A DNA stretch of 64,000 nucleotides from contig NZ_CP063398.1 in assembly GCF_021729845.1 (NCBI RefSeq), forward strand, positions 496,001-560,000. The letters are read 5' to 3'. This document shows positions 57,957-64,000 of this stretch, one piece after another; position 1 is the stretch's first letter; the number at the start of each line of letters is the position of its first letter. The position numbers and the translations under genes are program-made. The stretch is from Rhizobium sp. SL42. Lineage in GTDB: Bacteria > Pseudomonadota > Alphaproteobacteria > Rhizobiales > Rhizobiaceae. Under the pieces are notes generated by a model. The model had not been told where the DNA came from. It saw nothing but the letters and a program-made list of their open reading frames with translations, and ran no database searches.

Positions 57957-58109
57957 TCATGCACCGTTCCATGGCTTCGTTTTGCTATAGATCGGCGCAG
58001 CGCTGAACTTGCGATGATGAGCACGGGAAAATGCGGCGGCGCTGCCGAAGCCGACCTTGGCGGAGACCGCCTCGACACTCAGTCCGGCACGTCCGAACGC
58101 AAGACGTCT
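57957..58109 (-). pseudogene. Remnant of an AraC-family regulator (C-terminal HTH)
   Basis: About 50 codons read RRLAFGRAGLSVEAVSAKVG then FGSAAAFSRAHHRKFSAAP, the second helix-turn-helix of AraC regulators. The expected F in RAF is H and the first HTH and sensor domain are missing; the sequence upstream does not continue the family in any frame. I take it as a decayed gene. Confidence 0.65.
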
Positions 58110-58542
58110 TGCGGCGACCGTATGATTGCCAGTGTTGGCATTGCCGCGTGGCTCACCATACACATCGAGAACGACCGACATGGGATCACGCACTCGACAT
58201 GATACTCCAAGGCCCGCGAACGGCGCGAGAAGATCGAAGCGTCTGTTGCCAATTCAATCGGCAAACGTCATGGGTCGCAAAGGGCCTCGTCATCAATCCA
58301 TCGCACCCTGACTTGGATTGCAAGCAACAGCACCACCAAACAGCATGACGTCCGACGGGATTGCGACGTCCTGATCGACTGATCCGCAAGATGCAATCAA
58401 GCCACCAACCGACGGCAGGCCAGCCGGCCCCATACTCCATGGCTGCCTTGCCGACATACCGGCTTCTATGCCCGCCGCTCGGGAATATGGTACAGGCCTG
58501 CAAGAGCAAACTGACAACGAGTTTGCCCACAGCGCAAGGTCA
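58110..58542. other. Region downstream of the YcaO/TfuA operon
   Basis: About 430 bases with no established gene. It contains the uncertain 46-codon frame at 58293-58433 and an alternative frame beginning MEYGAGWPAVGWWLDC. No terminator was found. Together with the AraC remnant it looks like partly decayed sequence. Confidence 0.4.
58293..58433 (-). CDS. Small ORF, possible RiPP precursor (uncertain)
   Basis: 46 codons beginning MGPAGLPSVGGLIASCGSV, with a second cysteine near the end (GGAVACNPSQ). It lies just downstream of the YcaO/TfuA operon on the same strand. The composition (Gly, Ser, Ala, Val, two Cys) is peptide-like and there is a GGAG close to the ATG, but a competing frame is also open and codon use is not decisive. 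ATG at 58457 would add eight residues. Confidence 0.25.
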   Translation of the reverse strand: MGPAGLPSVGGLIASCGSVDQDVAIPSDVMLFGGAVACNPSQGAMD

Positions 58543-59238
58543 TCAGTCACGGTGTCGTTGCGGGGCCAGCGCCATCGTCTGTGCATAAGCGAGTGGCGAC
58601 CGGTTTCCGGGCATATTTTCGTCCAAAACCAACGTCTTCAGATCATCGGATCGGACATCGAGCGCGACGACGCGTTCAAGCTTGTCGATTTGCCACACGA
58701 CATAGCCAAGTTCGGGCACATAGCCGCAGTCACAACCGCAATCGCCCCCTTTGATCGCATGTGCCTCTTCGGGCAGATACATGATCTGGGGTTTCGGCAA
58801 CGTGTAGCAATGCCCCTCATAGGCATAGCCGTAAATCACACCAATGCTCTTTATATAGCGCCCGTCATCACCCTTAAAATTTTTCGACGGAACACCGATA
58901 TCGACGGGAAGCTGCTGGAGCTTGAGATTGTGATCGACAATGGCCAACACGATCTGCTGATTGACTATGCCGAATATTTCGTCGCTGGTAATCTTTAGGA
59001 CAGCGACTTCCTTGACGGCTTCAACAATTTTCCGCATCTCCGCGGAATCGACCGTAAGCCCTTGCAGTTTTTCAGAGATTTGCCTGGTTATAGTCTCGTC
59101 CGAAAGCTTGAAAATTGGCCGATGGATGGCGGGCCTGCCGTAGAGGCGCACTTCGCTCGGATTGTAAGATCGATAATCCGGCTCGGACAAACCTTCCAGA
59201 AACGGCCCCACACCGGGATGACTGCTGCAGTCGCTCAT
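58543..59238 (-). CDS. 231-residue protein with Cys-Gly motif in the YcaO/TfuA operon
   Basis: No family recognised. ATG 59238 follows AAGGAGA. The N-terminal half is helical and acidic/basic (DETITRQISEKLQGLTVDSA, MRKIVEAVKEVAVLKIT). Residues 164-173 read GGDCGCDCGY, with Cys167, Cys169 and Cys171 each followed by Gly or Asp. Such short Cys-Gly runs are typical YcaO substrates (azoline or thioamide sites) but could also bind a metal. The C-terminus is Pro/Arg-rich. It is the last gene of the operon, 18 bases after the metallopeptidase gene. It may be the modified substrate, a partner or an immunity protein. Confidence 0.75.
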   Translation of the reverse strand: MSDCSSHPGVGPFLEGLSEPDYRSYNPSEVRLYGRPAIHRPIFKLSDETITRQISEKLQGLTVDSAEMRKIVEAVKEVAVLKITSDEIFGIVNQQIVLAIVDHNLKLQQLPVDIGVPSKNFKGDDGRYIKSIGVIYGYAYEGHCYTLPKPQIMYLPEEAHAIKGGDCGCDCGYVPELGYVVWQIDKLERVVALDVRSDDLKTLVLDENMPGNRSPLAYAQTMALAPQRHRD

Positions 59239-59256
59239 CGCACTCTCCTTTGATAT

Positions 59257-60441
59257 TTACCTCGATCCAATGATTTCACGCCACACAAAATTCTCTTCCA
59301 GCAGCTCGGCCGCCCGCCCGTCCGAGGCGGCAATGACGGCGCCTGCCGCTTGATCCAGTCGCAGCGTGCCCGGATCAAGCGCTTTCAGTGAAGCCGCCAA
59401 AGCCGAGCCAACCGCGTCCCGTGCGCCGATCAACGCCTGTTTGAAAAACAACGGCCTGGCACTGAATGCCTGCGCCGTCGCTTGACGAAACATGTCGAAC
59501 TCGTCCCATGCCAGATCCCGCAGATCGACGTCCAGAAGCCGCTTGTCGGCGCAGCCTTTGGCGACAAGATCGCGATGATAAAGCGCAACGATGCTGTCGA
59601 AGATCGCGCCGACAAACGGCAATGCCCGGTCGTGGACCTCGCGCGTCACCGCAGACATTTTCCGGAAATTGGTTGCCAGACGGATCTGCGTTTCGGGGCT
59701 TGTTTCCGCAAAGCGGTTCAGTTCGTTGTACAGCAGCAGATTGCCTTTCGTTCTCCGCAAGAGCCGGTCAATCGCGGAATCGAAATGCAGGAGCGAGATC
59801 AGCGAAACGCAGTCCGAAAACGCTTCTGAATACGAAAAGAAGTCGCTGTCGGGCGATGCTGCGGTTGGCACGCCAGTCTCCGACAGCATGATCAGATGTC
59901 CGACCTCGTGGGCGATCGTGTCGAAATTCAACGCGTAAGGTCTGAGTATGCCATCGACGTCGGAACACCCCAGCTCCAGAAAGCCGTATCCCGCCTGGGC
60001 ATTATCCCAATCGACAAATGGAATGATTTCAAGCCGCGGAAAGGTCTGATCGAAAAACCAGTGGACCCGCCGTCCCAGATAGCTCTGCCAGATGTCGAGT
60101 ACAAACCGTACGCAGGCATAGGCGTGAACCGCGAGGAACGGACGCGAGGTTGGATCGATATTGTCGAAGTGTCTGTCCGGTCCAGGTCTGACCGGCGCGC
60201 GTTTTGCCCCACCGAACGGCGGCAGGTTCGCAAAGCCATAGGGCTGTTTGTGATCGACCGGATCAGCGACATACATGGAGAGGTCGCTTGGCCCCTCGCC
60301 GATTTCATCCCGCTGTATCGACAGCCACACACGGTCGGGCTGTTCGTATCCGGGAATGAAGGGGGGTTGGGGATAGATCCAGAAGCGCGTGCCTAGACGC
60401 GCATTTCCAGAATCGAGGGAATCGTCCCGAAGCAGGCGCAT
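59257..60441 (-). CDS. Gluzincin metallopeptidase (thermolysin-like M4 fold)
   Basis: 394 residues. The zinc motif is H178-E-V-G-H182 (IAHEVGHLIMLSE), and E206 in YSEAFSDCVSL corresponds to the third ligand in the E-A-x-S-D motif of thermolysin-like enzymes. No signal peptide is seen, so it is probably cytoplasmic, unlike secreted M4 enzymes. The N-terminal 165 residues are unfamiliar. In this operon it may trim the product of the YcaO/TfuA pair or cleave a leader. The start lies 32 bases after tfuA. Confidence 0.82.
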   Translation of the reverse strand: MRLLRDDSLDSGNARLGTRFWIYPQPPFIPGYEQPDRVWLSIQRDEIGEGPSDLSMYVADPVDHKQPYGFANLPPFGGAKRAPVRPGPDRHFDNIDPTSRPFLAVHAYACVRFVLDIWQSYLGRRVHWFFDQTFPRLEIIPFVDWDNAQAGYGFLELGCSDVDGILRPYALNFDTIAHEVGHLIMLSETGVPTAASPDSDFFSYSEAFSDCVSLISLLHFDSAIDRLLRRTKGNLLLYNELNRFAETSPETQIRLATNFRKMSAVTREVHDRALPFVGAIFDSIVALYHRDLVAKGCADKRLLDVDLRDLAWDEFDMFRQATAQAFSARPLFFKQALIGARDAVGSALAASLKALDPGTLRLDQAAGAVIAASDGRAAELLEENFVWREIIGSR

Positions 60442-60473
60442 CGCACATTTGCCCCCTCGATTGAAACTCGCAT

Positions 60474-61253
60474 CTAAGGGTTCAATTTATAAGTGTTGAC
60501 TAATTTTGAGTCAATGCCGCCAGCCTCAAGATCGCGGACAAAGGTATTCGTTGCAATCCACGTGCTGCTCGCCGGCCCCGCCGCGTGCCCCCTCGCGAGG
60601 GCAGGCACGCTTTGCAGCGCCAGCAGCGCATCCAGTCTCTTTTGGCCCACTACCTCTTTGCACAATTCCTTCAGCCGCTCTTCCGGCCATCCCGCATCCC
60701 GCATGACCAACTCGAACCGGCGCTCCCGAAAATTCATGTTACGTGCAATCGTTGTCAACGCGGCGCGCTGTGCGGGGGTTGCCAAATTCTGGCGCTCCAG
60801 ATTGGCGAATGTCCGCTGAAGATCGATCAGTGCGTGCGTCAAGGGTAGGAAGCCGAGTTCCGCCGGACCTGAAAGAACCGCGACAGCATCGTCGGGAGCC
60901 AGTTGCCAGCGCCGATACCACCTGTAGATCAGGCCTACTCCAATCATACCGAATGGATTGAGTTCAGCGGCCCTGAGCGCGCCCATGCTCGCGGCCCCAA
61001 TTACCAGGATCCCCTGTGCCATCGCCCAGAGGATTTCCTTGTGCCGCACGGCCGGCCTGTCCTCGAATTGCCCGTCGATCAGGACCATGATCCGCGGACG
61101 GTATGCGTGGGCGGCCAGCAAAATGTCGCCTTGCGCGGCCGGCTGCACGTATATGGCATCGAGAACCCGCTCGGCCTCGACCAGTCGAAGCGTTGGACCA
61201 AGGAACACCACCACCGGACCTTCCGCGCTCCCATCGACCATATCAACACTCAC
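60474..61253 (-). CDS. TfuA-like protein
   Basis: 259 residues. VVVFLGPTL, MVLIDGQFEDRPAVRHKEILWAMAQGILVIGAASMGALRAAELNPFGMIGVG is the TfuA domain. TfuA acts with YcaO in trifolitoxin-type biosynthesis and in thioamidation of methyl-coenzyme M reductase, where it is thought to deliver sulfur. GTG at 61253 overlaps the ycaO stop (GTGA); an ATG five codons in is possible. An upstream extension inside ycaO is unlikely. Confidence 0.93.
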   Translation of the reverse strand: MSVDMVDGSAEGPVVVFLGPTLRLVEAERVLDAIYVQPAAQGDILLAAHAYRPRIMVLIDGQFEDRPAVRHKEILWAMAQGILVIGAASMGALRAAELNPFGMIGVGLIYRWYRRWQLAPDDAVAVLSGPAELGFLPLTHALIDLQRTFANLERQNLATPAQRAALTTIARNMNFRERRFELVMRDAGWPEERLKELCKEVVGQKRLDALLALQSVPALARGHAAGPASSTWIATNTFVRDLEAGGIDSKLVNTYKLNP

Positions 61254-62488
61254 CGCTGGATTGAAAAAGGTCGGGCTCCGGCAAGAATGGTTCTCACGCA
61301 TTGGACACCCGTCTCGATGTCCGATCCCAACGGAACAGCCAGTATCGGTCCGAAGCCGGCAGAAAGAACCCTGTCGATGAGCGAGCCGAGATCCGGCACG
61401 GCGCAGGCTTCCATCGCCGGGTGCGGTAACCTGGTCGGGTCTACAACAATAAGCTGGCGTGCCTTGGCGACGACCATGTCGGTGCTGCGCCTGTAGTGCT
61501 CGCGGGTTTGATCATCGCGCGCACCCGAAATGGCGCCGGCTCGTGCCGACAAGGCTTCGAGCATCGCACTCGCCGCCGCCGTAGCGATGCTTGGTGCCGC
61601 CGCATATCCCTCGGTCGGAAGAGCAAGGATAGGTTCGCCTGGACCTGTCTCGATCGTCTGGCACCAGACCACCGGAACCTTTGCCGGCGACGGAACGAGC
61701 CACAAGCCAAAGGACACAGGATGCTCGCCGACAATGGACAGGATGTGATCAACCCCGTCCCCCAACCCGAGCGGAGAAATACGCATGCGATCAAAGAAGC
61801 CGTGGGTAGCAAAGGCGCGAGCGATGGCGTCGCGCTCGATACATTCGAACAATCCATGCACAAACGCATCGAGCAATGTCATGTGACAGGCAAGACCCGT
61901 GGTCGTGCGCATAAACACACCATCATGAGCGAGTGGCGGATCCGTATAGCAGGCGTGAACCAGTTCGAGCGGCACCGGTTGCGGCAAACCGGTCTTGATA
62001 TCGATACCGGTGATCCACGATAGGCTCCTTGCACGCCAGTTTCCCCGGCGATCCGGTGTCAGGAGATTTTCAAACAGGCCGTCAGCGATTTTGAGTTCAT
62101 CCGCCGTCGCTTGAAATATAAACTCGGAGGGAATGGCTTCAGCGTAGAACCGCTCAAGCGATTCCATGATCGCCCCCACCGCCGCGCCCGCCATCCAAAG
62201 GCCCCGCCCGAGTGAAGTGACTTCAGAGAGGGCCGCGGGTCGCACGGTTTGAACGACCGGCAGGCCGATCCGGTCCAGTCCGGTCAGATCCCCCAGCCGG
62301 GTTATGCGCGCGCGACGACAGAGCGGCAGTATCTTGCGCAAGCATTGATTGGTCTCTTCGCGATCTGGGCGTGGCGTTAGGGATTTGTGCAGGTTTGACA
62401 CCACGGCACAGTGAAGACGCGCAAGCATCTCGTCACGGTCTGACGGACCGTTCGCTTCCGGGTGCGTGAGATCAAGATTGACCTGCAA
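61250..62488 (-). CDS. YcaO-domain cyclodehydratase/thioamide synthetase
   Basis: 412 residues. YcaO ATP/Mg motifs are seen in GAIMESLERFYAEA and HGLFECIERDAIARAF, with further conserved residues in PTEGYAAAPSIATAAASAMLEAL. YcaO proteins activate a peptide amide oxygen with ATP, giving azolines, thioamides or amidines. Its neighbour TfuA suggests thioamide or related sulfur chemistry. Start is TTG 62488, with CAGGAG upstream, inside the 3' end of the regulator gene (17-base overlap). Confidence 0.93.
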   Translation of the reverse strand: MQVNLDLTHPEANGPSDRDEMLARLHCAVVSNLHKSLTPRPDREETNQCLRKILPLCRRARITRLGDLTGLDRIGLPVVQTVRPAALSEVTSLGRGLWMAGAAVGAIMESLERFYAEAIPSEFIFQATADELKIADGLFENLLTPDRRGNWRARSLSWITGIDIKTGLPQPVPLELVHACYTDPPLAHDGVFMRTTTGLACHMTLLDAFVHGLFECIERDAIARAFATHGFFDRMRISPLGLGDGVDHILSIVGEHPVSFGLWLVPSPAKVPVVWCQTIETGPGEPILALPTEGYAAAPSIATAAASAMLEALSARAGAISGARDDQTREHYRRSTDMVVAKARQLIVVDPTRLPHPAMEACAVPDLGSLIDRVLSAGFGPILAVPLGSDIETGVQCVRTILAGARPFSIQR

Positions 62489-64000
62489 AGCCTAGCTCCT
62501 GAATGGAACGTCTCGCCCGCCTTAGAAGCGCCTTGGCGCCTTGGCGCTCGGCAATTTCCATGGCGGAGCGAAGGTCAGCCGCAACGGGCTCCTTGGTGGT
62601 ATTGAGCCGCGCATGAAGAACGGCGCGGCGGCGGTAAAGCTCGGCCAGCCAATAGGCATGCCCGGTCTCCCTGGCCTTTTCGATTGCGTCGTTCGTGACC
62701 TCGACCGCCCGCTCGAATTTGCCCGCAAGACCGAACAGGGTGGCCTGCATGTAGAGATAGATGGGAAGATCTGCGACGGCACCTAGGCTTCTCAGGTGCG
62801 ACAGCCCTTCGCTGAACATCGCATGCCCACTGTCGAGGTCTTCGCTATGGGCATGAGCCCATCCGGCAAAGAGCAGCGCCAGACCGGACAACGACTGCAT
62901 ATCGTGAAACTTCGCGAAATCGGCCATTCTCCCGGCAATTTCGGCAAGACGCCCATAGTCATCTCGATAAAACGCCGACACCGCTTCCGTATCCAGCGAG
63001 TGCGCCTTGCTTGGCGCGTGTGATATCCGGTCTGCGAAAGCGACCATCTTCGAAAGAGATGTGTCCGAGGCTTTCGATTGCCCCGTCAGCCAAAGCGAAA
63101 GAGTAAGTTGGCCGAGGCCGCACACTTTTGCGTCATGGCCACCAAACAACGTGCGGCTGGTCCTTGCAGATTGCTCTTCGTAAAGCGCCAGCCCCGCCTT
63201 GATCGCTGACTGGGTCTCCTGATGGTTGCCGAGGTTGAAATCGATGGCCCAGATGCAATGGTTGACCTGCAGCTTGATCTCCGGATCGTCCACCCCGGCC
63301 AACATTGCCTGCACCTGCAGTGCACGATCATGCATGACGCGAAAATCAGATCCTGTCAGCCACCATCCCCAATAGATGGGAAACCATCTGGATTGGTCCT
63401 CCAACGGCTGCCGACGGGCTATGTTTACGCCATTTTCATAGAGCGTACGTGCCGGCAGCGAGTTCTGTCCGACAAGGCCGGTGAGGATGGGACCGAGTAA
63501 AGTCAACGCAGCCAGTTGATAAGGCTCGATTGCTTGTTTCTCCCCCATGCGATCGCACAACGCCAGGGCGTGCTCCAGATAGTTGCGCGCCTCTATCATC
63601 GCCGATCGGCTGGAACTCTCCCTGCCTGCCGCGGTATAAAGATCGATTGCATTTTCAAGCAGCCCCCCACGTTCCGCATGCTCTGCCAGCGTTCCGGTAT
63701 CCATCCACGAGGCCATCGGGCGGTCTTGACTGACTGCCGCGAACAGGCGCCGATGCAATGCCTGCTGTTGCTTGCGCAAGAGCGTTTTATATATGGTCTC
63801 CTGGATCAGAGCGTGTCGGAAACCGTAGGCGACATGCCCACGTGTCCTGACCCGCATCAGGAACCCCGCATCGCTCAGGGTATCGGCGGCCTTGGCCAGG
63901 GAGGCCTTGCTCAGCCCTGGCAACAGGGCGCGAAGTAGTTGCAGCGTGAACCGGTTGCCCGCAACAGCTCCCGCCCGGGCCACGTCTCTAGACGTGCCCA
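62472..64000 (-). CDS. AAA ATPase/TPR-repeat regulator, N-terminus beyond window
   Basis: At least 509 residues, open to the window edge. The first visible part (SRDVARAGAVAGNRFTLQLLRALLP, then GFRHALIQETIYKTLLRKQQQALHRRL) is the winged-helix end of an AAA_16/STAND ATPase as in adenylate-cyclase-ATPase or LuxR (MalT-like) proteins. The rest is TPR helices (GHDAKVCGLGQLTLSLWLTGQ, AHSEDLDSGHAMFSEGLSHL, RRRAVLHARLNTTKEPVAADLRSAMEIA). It probably senses a signal and controls the operon it heads. The N-terminal output domain is not visible. Confidence 0.85.
   Translation of the reverse strand, partial: GTSRDVARAGAVAGNRFTLQLLRALLPGLSKASLAKAADTLSDAGFLMRVRTRGHVAYGFRHALIQETIYKTLLRKQQQALHRRLFAAVSQDRPMASWMDTGTLAEHAERGGLLENAIDLYTAAGRESSSRSAMIEARNYLEHALALCDRMGEKQAIEPYQLAALTLLGPILTGLVGQNSLPARTLYENGVNIARRQPLEDQSRWFPIYWGWWLTGSDFRVMHDRALQVQAMLAGVDDPEIKLQVNHCIWAIDFNLGNHQETQSAIKAGLALYEEQSARTSRTLFGGHDAKVCGLGQLTLSLWLTGQSKASDTSLSKMVAFADRISHAPSKAHSLDTEAVSAFYRDDYGRLAEIAGRMADFAKFHDMQSLSGLALLFAGWAHAHSEDLDSGHAMFSEGLSHLRSLGAVADLPIYLYMQATLFGLAGKFERAVEVTNDAIEKARETGHAYWLAELYRRRAVLHARLNTTKEPVAADLRSAMEIAERQGAKALLRRARRSIQELGFAGQS

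What the first reader, a model, noticed from the sequence alone, without database searches (positions are those of the whole stretch)
57957..64000. YcaO-TfuA operon with a gluzincin peptidase and a Cys-Gly motif protein: candidate new RiPP-like or protein-modification system
Five minus-strand genes are packed with overlaps or gaps below 35 bases: AAA/TPR regulator, YcaO (ATP motifs in ESLERF and ECIERDA), TfuA (GAASMGALRAAEL), HEVGH metallopeptidase and a 231-residue unknown carrying GGDCGCDCGY. YcaO plus TfuA is known from trifolitoxin and from MCR thioamidation. A cytoplasmic thermolysin-like peptidase and this unknown partner are not a combination I know. The unknown may be the substrate, with thioamides or azoles on its Cys-Gly run, and the peptidase the maturation protease.
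Basis: partly seen in the sequence, partly recalled or inferred. Interest (0 to 1): 0.88.

Follow-up and report, generated by a model that had tools for sequence, protein, structure and literature searches.

The report
YcaO-TfuA peptide cassette, repeat-tailed precursor
Soil bacteria that live with plants carry a compact five-gene cassette that probably makes small modified peptides: its last gene looks like the raw protein, and in distant relatives that protein ends in a row of repeated short peptides, which suggests that the tail, not the cysteine-rich stretch, is the product.

Summary
In detail: regulator, YcaO, TfuA, HEVGH peptidase and a 231-residue unknown (gene 5) form one tight operon. 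All five genes, in this order, occur in 78 of the 80 related loci returned, and their sequence distances correlate (YcaO/TfuA/peptidase r 0.96-0.97; gene 5/peptidase 0.88). The Cys-Gly run is not the conserved feature: 17 of 80 gene-5 proteins have Ser for its last Cys, 16 of them with all five genes present. The C-terminal motif PGxRxPxxY is present in 79 of 79. In distant alphaproteobacteria the same peptidase is followed by a divergent gene 5 whose C-terminus is a tandem array: RAVMAS, SRAMMQ, VSGAR, GAGQMV, DLVGRS, GMNV, GQNV and others (12 of 102 proteins). Array units differ mostly silently (149 synonymous, 20 nonsynonymous). Tail type follows the peptidase tree. Best reading: gene 5 is an unusually long RiPP-type precursor whose C-terminal core YcaO-TfuA thioamidates and the M4-like peptidase releases. 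No chemistry was shown and no structure prediction could be run. Six literature searches showed no description of the cassette.

The parts
58543..59238 (-). gene 5: 231-aa proposed precursor (conserved N-terminal part plus C-terminal core)
   Evidence: ORF; AAGGAG site before ATG; last gene of the cassette in 78 of 80 loci; no Pfam or NCBIfam family above cut-off
58546..58623 (-). proposed core: C-terminal tail DENMPGNRSPLAYAQTMALAPQRHRD (residues 206-231)
   Evidence: PGxRxPxxY in 79 of 79 close homologues; tandem arrays stand in its place in distant homologues
58720..58749 (-). Cys-Gly run GGDCGCDCGY (residues 164-173), a variable stretch
   Evidence: last Cys is Ser in 17 of 80; CGCDCG in 35 of 79
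59137..59145 (-). LYG motif of gene 5 (residues 32-34), proposed recognition element
   Evidence: LYG in 80 of 81 rows, missing only in the remnant L096
59257..60441 (-). M4-like gluzincin peptidase, 394 aa, no Pfam family
   Evidence: H178, E179, H182, E206, D210, H270, D271 at least 98% conserved in 80 sequences
59896..59910 (-). HEVGH zinc motif (residues 178-182)
60474..61301 (-). TfuA, 275 aa
   Evidence: PF07812 1.5e-41; NF033432 175.7 bits, cut-off 235.2
61250..62488 (-). YcaO, 412 aa
   Evidence: PF02624 1.8e-42; E109, E112, E215, E218, R219, R316, R324, D326 at least 98% conserved in 79 sequences
62472..64000 (-). regulator: cyclase-like N-terminus, AAA/STAND-type ATPase, weak TPR matches, 1019 aa; continues beyond the window
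   Evidence: complete ORF L003:6472-9531; AAA_16 4.9e-19; Walker A and B residues conserved

Best explanation
A self-contained RiPP-like cassette. The cyclase-like/STAND/TPR protein senses a signal and controls the operon. Gene 5 is a long precursor: an N-terminal LYG element and a conserved domain present a C-terminal core to YcaO, which with TfuA installs backbone thioamides. The cytoplasmic M4-like peptidase then cuts the modified core from its carrier: a single PGxRSPxxY peptide in rhizobia, and 3 to 12 short peptides from tandem arrays in other alphaproteobacteria. Shown: gene content and order, correlated distances, conserved catalytic residues, array tails, silent divergence of the arrays, and the match of tail type with peptidase clade. 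Inferred: thioamidation, its position, cleavage by this peptidase, that the conserved domain is a folded carrier, control by the regulator, and the biological role.
For: All five genes in order in 78 of 80 loci. Distance correlations YcaO/TfuA/peptidase 0.957-0.970 and gene 5/peptidase 0.880 over 79 loci (no control gene could be compared, and shared descent alone raises such values). YcaO-TfuA-peptidase order in 21 of 22 divergent genome loci with strong peptidase matches, three of which are contigs already in the first set. Gene-5 families of both kinds are related (hhalign probability 97.6, E 4.1e-12 over 76 columns) and the match ends at PG, a few residues before the arrays. C-terminal arrays in 12 of 102 proteins at 0 of 300 shuffles. 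Synonymous/nonsynonymous differences between units 149/20 over 11 arrays. On the peptidase tree the PG-tail rows are one side of a branch (SH-aLRT 100), and in genus g269 both tail types occur, each with its own peptidase clade. Precedents: thiovarsolins, thioamidated tripeptides from a repeated precursor, for which varA, YcaO and TfuA suffice (PMC6511847, passages); E. coli YcaO needs full-length uL16 (PMC13063428, passages).
Against: No chemistry, expression or structure was seen. In 3 plasmid loci (L142, L143, L145) peptidase and repeat-tailed gene 5 stand without YcaO-TfuA in the 13 kb read, and in G527 YcaO is unlinked, so the pair may work without thioamidation. L137 and L182 have Arg-rich tails without repeats. 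The window's own tail is not repeated and, unlike most cores, is conserved rather than variable. The conserved unit has no exporter or immunity gene. Gene 5 of L133 matches the gene-5 profile only at E 0.048 and that of L169 not at all; they rest on position and on likeness to each other. Weaker peptidase relatives (L139-L141) have no YcaO or TfuA beside them.
Confidence: 0.55

Rival explanations
1. Gene 5 is a partner or adaptor, not the substrate. YcaO-TfuA modify an unlinked cellular protein, as in MCR or uL16, and the array tails are binding or tethering modules for the peptidase.
For: YcaO thioamidation of single cellular proteins is established (PMC5589413, listing and start of abstract only; PMC13063428, passages). 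Gene 5 has a conserved domain. Pentapeptide-repeat models match 3 of 13 members of A5 weakly (best 0.0038). The peptidase-gene 5 pair exists without nearby YcaO.
Against: YcaO-TfuA stand with gene 5 in 78 of 80 loci, and gene 5 is patchy: 14 of 199 family genomes, the window's own and one remnant included, odd for modification of a core protein. The arrays differ wholly between lineages.
Confidence: 0.2
2. A switch or conflict system: the modified tail of gene 5 is a non-cleavable pseudosubstrate that holds the peptidase inactive until the STAND protein releases it.
For: Regulator with intact Walker motifs, a peptidase that shows no leader on reading, no exporter in the conserved unit, patchy and often plasmid-borne distribution. 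That thioamides resist zinc proteases is recalled.
Against: No PADLOC system match; only weak hits of the regulator (PycC 1.4e-4 and 0.054, Avs2 0.062) and none for the other four proteins. Nothing shows inhibition. Arrays of up to 12 units are not needed for an inhibitor.
Confidence: 0.12
3. One reading: gene 5 carries azoles or thioamides on its Cys-Gly run.
For: GGDCGCDCGY is present in the window and CGCDCG in 35 of 79 homologues.
Against: Ser replaces the last Cys in 17 of 80, 16 of them with all five genes present; no match to an E1-like partner among the five proteins; PxPxP in 0 of 79 YcaOs.
Confidence: 0.05

Closest known systems
Thiovarsolin pathway (varA, varY, varT), Streptomyces; PMC6511847, passages seen
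   Same: YcaO plus TfuA; repeated short cores in one precursor; a small residue stands before or near Arg in many of the repeats, compare APR
   Different: The thiovarsolin cluster has no specific protease; here there is an M4-like peptidase, a gene 5 of about 150-300 aa with a conserved domain, and a STAND-type regulator. No APR motif. The window's own tail is a single copy.
MCR thioamidation pair (TIGR03266, NF033432)
   Same: Best-scoring NCBIfam models for the YcaO and TfuA of the window
   Different: Scores below their cut-offs (118.3 of 365 bits; 175.7 of 235.2); peptidase and gene 5 added
TOMM kinase/cyclase fusion TIGR03903
   Same: C-terminal half of the regulator matches (9.3e-29)
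   Different: 99.9 of 705.75 bits, scored on the in-window half only; in the complete 1019-aa protein Pfam reports no kinase domain
M4 (thermolysin) peptidases
   Same: HExxH, Glu 24 residues further on in an EAxSD-like context, His-Asp beyond, all conserved
   Different: No Pfam match for the window protein; among 14 members best M4 E 0.058 in 1 and Reprolysin_4 0.01 in 3; best solved-structure sequence match is ACE at 0.038. The RiPP protease review PMC10885120 (passages) has no mention of thermolysin.

Membership tests
TfuA-associated, thioamide-forming YcaO | YcaO domain with conserved ATP-binding residues (which residues: recalled) | tested here: met
   PF02624 1.8e-42; E109/E112/E215/E218/R219/R316/R324/D326 at least 98% in 79 sequences
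TfuA-associated, thioamide-forming YcaO | adjacent TfuA | tested here: met
   78 of 80 loci; the other two are a remnant and a 3-kb contig
TfuA-associated, thioamide-forming YcaO | thioamide in the product | not testable with these tools
   needs mass spectrometry
Azole/azoline (LAP) YcaO cyclodehydratase | E1-like or ocin-ThiF partner in the operon; C-terminal PxPxP (both recalled) | tested here: not met
   no match among the five proteins, two of which match no family; PxPxP in 0 of 79
Multi-core thioamidated RiPP (thiovarsolin-like) | repeated cores in the precursor | tested here: inconclusive
   C-terminal arrays in 12 of 102 gene-5 proteins, all divergent; none in the window's own protein
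Multi-core thioamidated RiPP (thiovarsolin-like) | precursor within the 20-120 aa window used in that study | tested here: not met
   231 aa in the window; RiPPER window in PMC6511847
Peptidase family M4 | family profile match | tested here: not met
   no Pfam family for the window protein; 1 of 14 members at 0.058
Peptidase family M4 | HExxH plus distal Glu and catalytic His | tested here: met
   H178, E179, H182, E206, H270 at least 98% of 80; that H270 is the catalytic His is inference
TOMM kinase/cyclase fusion (TIGR03903) | curated score cut-off | tested here: not met
   99.9 of 705.75 bits for the in-window half; the complete protein was not scanned against NCBIfam

The most novel reading that the evidence does not exclude
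A new class of ribosomal peptide pathway in alphaproteobacteria: a folded carrier protein delivers one or many short tail peptides, most with an Arg, to YcaO-TfuA, and a new cytoplasmic M4-like protease family dedicated to this carrier dices the thioamidated array into identical small signals. The rhizobial branch would have frozen a single PGxRSPxxY peptide as a conserved signal.
Probability: 0.42. Interest if true: 0.85.

Novelty: new variant of a known kind. Interest (0 to 1): 0.72.

Why it matters
YcaO-TfuA clusters are abundant in Rhizobium (over 500 in PMC8120280, passages). That survey sought precursors with RiPPER; the study that introduced RiPPER used a 20-120 residue window, and which window the survey used was not seen. 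A 150-300 residue carrier falls outside such a window. This cassette offers an assignable substrate, a candidate protease and a predicted product sequence, so the question of what these pairs modify in plant-associated bacteria becomes testable with one co-expression and mass-spectrometry experiment.

Tried and rejected
Cys-Gly run as modification site: rejected by comparison. Known families of gene 5 and the peptidase in Pfam, NCBIfam, PADLOC and PDB sequences: nothing convincing (the weak hits that bear on the reading are named in the fields above). A known defence system: only weak PADLOC hits of the regulator. Structure prediction of gene 5 (alignment A3): never started, the machine was busy at all 21 attempts, so no fold search was made. 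Promoter and terminator scan of L003:1900-10900: no excess over shuffles. Literature: six searches listed no paper that describes the cassette by title or opening abstract; the library holds only open-licence papers, and searches listed 30 of 65 and 20 of 107.

Rows left out and limits of counts: of 106 relatives found only the best 80 were returned; L096 (remnant) was left out of the 79. The 80 and 81 rows include the window's own protein. The 102 proteins include three contigs twice (L132/L101, L174/L081, L180/L080) and near-copies such as L175/L176. L134, L171 and L172 were left out because their contigs end in or before gene 5. The tree used 19 of the 80 close peptidases. In one search the parser misread L074 (a W inside the stretch), so the Ser count is taken. 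In one search L145 was not found by its start motif, so 11 of 12 listed arrays were counted; L175 and L176 are near-copies, and units share descent, so the p values are rough. Weak peptidase relatives and 73 other than L139-L141 were not examined.
Full report
Observation. The window holds five minus-strand genes packed with gaps of 18 and 32 bases and overlaps of 52 and 17 bases. From upstream they are a 1019-aa regulator, YcaO, TfuA, a 394-aa HEVGH peptidase and the 231-aa gene 5. The regulator runs past the window end; it has an AAA_16 ATPase domain (4.9e-19), an N-terminus that looks like a class III cyclase domain (PADLOC PycC 1.4e-4; no Pfam cyclase at E 0.1), and a C-terminal half related to TOMM kinase/cyclase fusions (9.3e-29, far below cut-off). 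The genome carries a second YcaO-TfuA pair with other neighbours on another contig.

Conservation of the unit. Gene 5 is found on 73 plasmid records, in 8 of 297 genomes of the order and in 14 of 199 of the family, the window's own genome included in both genome counts and one remnant in each, so it is accessory. A scan of named genomes gave 106 relatives, of which the best 80 were returned. In 78 of these 80 the five genes stand together in the same order; the exceptions are a gene-5 remnant (L096) and a 3-kb contig (L097). A few loci have a gene in two frames (cyc in L031, L048, L074 and L080; the peptidase in L049). Flanking genes differ between the plasmid records read, apart from L015 and L016, which share theirs. 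Pairwise distance matrices over 79 loci correlate at 0.957-0.970 among YcaO, TfuA and peptidase, 0.838-0.880 between gene 5 and these, and 0.695-0.848 with the regulator. No control gene shared by the loci was at hand, and common descent alone raises such values. YcaO residues E109, E112, E215, E218, R219, R316, R324 and D326 and peptidase residues H178, E179, H182, E206, D210, H270 and D271 are at least 98% conserved in 79 and 80 sequences. The cyclase-like domain keeps its two Asp positions in most rows (73 and 76 of 79), but the Asn position recalled for catalysis is Ala in 68 of 79, so it may not be an active cyclase; Walker A and B residues are conserved.

The Cys-Gly run. In the alignment, which includes the window's own protein, 17 of 80 proteins have Ser where the run has its last Cys; 16 of these have all five genes present, the seventeenth lies on the short contig L097. 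CGCDCG is present in 35 of 79. The neighbouring Cys of EGHCY is Thr in 16 of 80 and Ala in 1. By contrast LYG near the N-terminus is present in 80 of 81 rows, missing only in the remnant, and PGxRxPxxY at the C-terminus in 79 of 79, PGxRSPxxY in 77. Mean entropy per ten residues is 0.40-0.64 bits in residues 131-150 (the EGH block), 0.79-0.80 in 201-220 (the block with PGNRSP), 1.44 and 1.36 in the two blocks with the Cys-Gly run, and 2.46-3.27 in 41-130.

Distant cassettes. Profile searches with the peptidase gave matches in 12 of 385 class genomes and 12 of 398 phylum genomes, the window's own genome and several weak matches included, and at E 1e-30 in 2 of 91, 8 of 88, 3 of 89, 7 of 88 and 6 of 87 relatives of five distant carriers, with some genomes recurring. 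In the 22 genome loci with strong matches that I read (L132-L138, L168-L182), 21 have YcaO-TfuA-peptidase in order and one (L138) has TfuA-peptidase with YcaO on another contig. L132, L174 and L180 are the same contigs as L101, L081 and L080. The regulator was not found beside some of them (for example L135, L137, L138, L173, L182). Three loci with weak peptidase matches (L139-L141) have no YcaO or TfuA; other weak matches were not examined.

Tandem tails. The gene after the peptidase in these cassettes ends in arrays: RAVMAS x12 (L133), SRAMMQ x10 (L169), VSGAR x7-8 (L135, L175, L176), GAGQMV (L168), DLVGRS (L136), DMxxRG (L170), GMNV (L138), GQNV/GQNI (L173), and in plasmid loci LSRSGG (L142, L145; L143 at 1 of 300); counts include near-identical units. 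Against 300 shuffles per protein, 13 of 102 proteins have a repeat that no shuffle reaches; 12 of these are C-terminal, starting at 71-85% of the length, and one (L054) is an N-terminal GPNPT repeat. Between units, 149 of 169 nucleotide differences are synonymous, where 15-36% were expected per array. Units share descent and L175 and L176 are near-copies, so the p values are rough, but the peptide is clearly what is kept. L137 and L182 have Arg-rich tails without repeats; the PG-tail rows have none.

Link between the two kinds. Profile-profile comparison of the two gene-5 families gives probability 97.6 and E 4.1e-12 over 76 columns, ending at the PG position, a few residues before the arrays. 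Single-sequence profile matches are weak for L133 (E 0.048) and absent for L169; L169 resembles L133 on reading, and both rest mainly on position. In a peptidase tree of 43 rows (19 of the 80 close ones, 23 divergent or plasmid ones and Nostoc as outgroup) the 27 PG-tail rows fall on one side of a branch with SH-aLRT 100 and the 13 repeat and 2 Arg-rich rows on the other. In genus g269 both tail types occur and each goes with its own peptidase clade. This is what one expects if the peptidase reads the tail.

Mechanism. The economical reading is a RiPP-type pathway with a long precursor: gene 5. YcaO and TfuA point to thioamidation; the lack of a match to an E1-like partner among the five proteins and of a C-terminal PxPxP in 79 of 79 YcaOs speaks against azoles. 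Thiovarsolins are the nearest precedent: APR tripeptides with a thioamide, cut from a repeated precursor for which varA, varY and varT suffice, with no specific protease in the cluster (PMC6511847, passages). E. coli YcaO needs full-length uL16 and thioamidates Met82 beside Arg81 (PMC13063428, passages), a precedent for a protein-sized substrate. Many arrays place a small residue before Arg, but GMNV, GQNV and GAGQMV hold no Arg, so the modified position is open. The peptidase has thermolysin-like residues but no family match above cut-off, and a review of RiPP proteases has no mention of thermolysin (PMC10885120, passages).

Against. Nothing chemical is shown. The peptidase and a repeat-tailed gene 5 occur without YcaO-TfuA in the stretches read of three plasmids, R. 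etli CFN 42 p42c among them; whether those genomes have YcaO elsewhere was not searched. A Nostoc plasmid has a peptidase relative beside a radical SAM and two ferritin-like genes, which fits a peptide-maturation protease but not this substrate. There is no exporter in the conserved unit. Structure prediction could not be run at any of 21 attempts, so that gene 5 is folded is inference from conservation.

Literature. Six searches listed no paper describing this cassette; two of the lists were capped. PMC8120280 (passages and sections 11, 12 and 15) reports over 500 TfuA-related clusters in Rhizobium and took precursors from RiPPER, which was run with a 20-120 residue window in the study that introduced it. 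PMC4603692 (passages) left TfuA-associated YcaOs aside as of unknown substrate. PMC8939145 (passages) links YcaO-TfuA with ATP-grasp enzymes, not with this peptidase.

Noticed in passing
   Followed up: no
L004:10531-13588: Second YcaO-TfuA pair of the same genome, with a BTAD-TPR regulator upstream and a 403-aa protein without Pfam family downstream.
   Followed up: partly
L183:8986-15175: Nostoc sp. UHCC 0302 plasmid: peptidase relative beside a radical SAM gene and two ferritin-like genes, another possible peptide pathway.
   Followed up: no
L142:5998-8312: R. etli CFN 42 p42c and relatives: peptidase, repeat-tailed gene 5 and a further 112-aa gene without YcaO-TfuA nearby.
   Followed up: partly
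L021:3374-6754: tfuA in two pieces about 2.6 kb apart in Rhizobium sp. T1473; cyc and tfuA each in two frames in S. meliloti Ak57 (L019).
   Followed up: no
L054:9001-9100: N-terminal GPNPT tandem repeat in one gene-5 protein.
   Followed up: no
L190:6492-8234: In genome G527 the only YcaO found stands on another contig than the TfuA-peptidase-gene 5 set.
   Followed up: partly
L014:21-374: Predicted aminoglycoside phosphotransferase gene in the flank of the Phyllobacterium cassette; not part of it.
   Followed up: no
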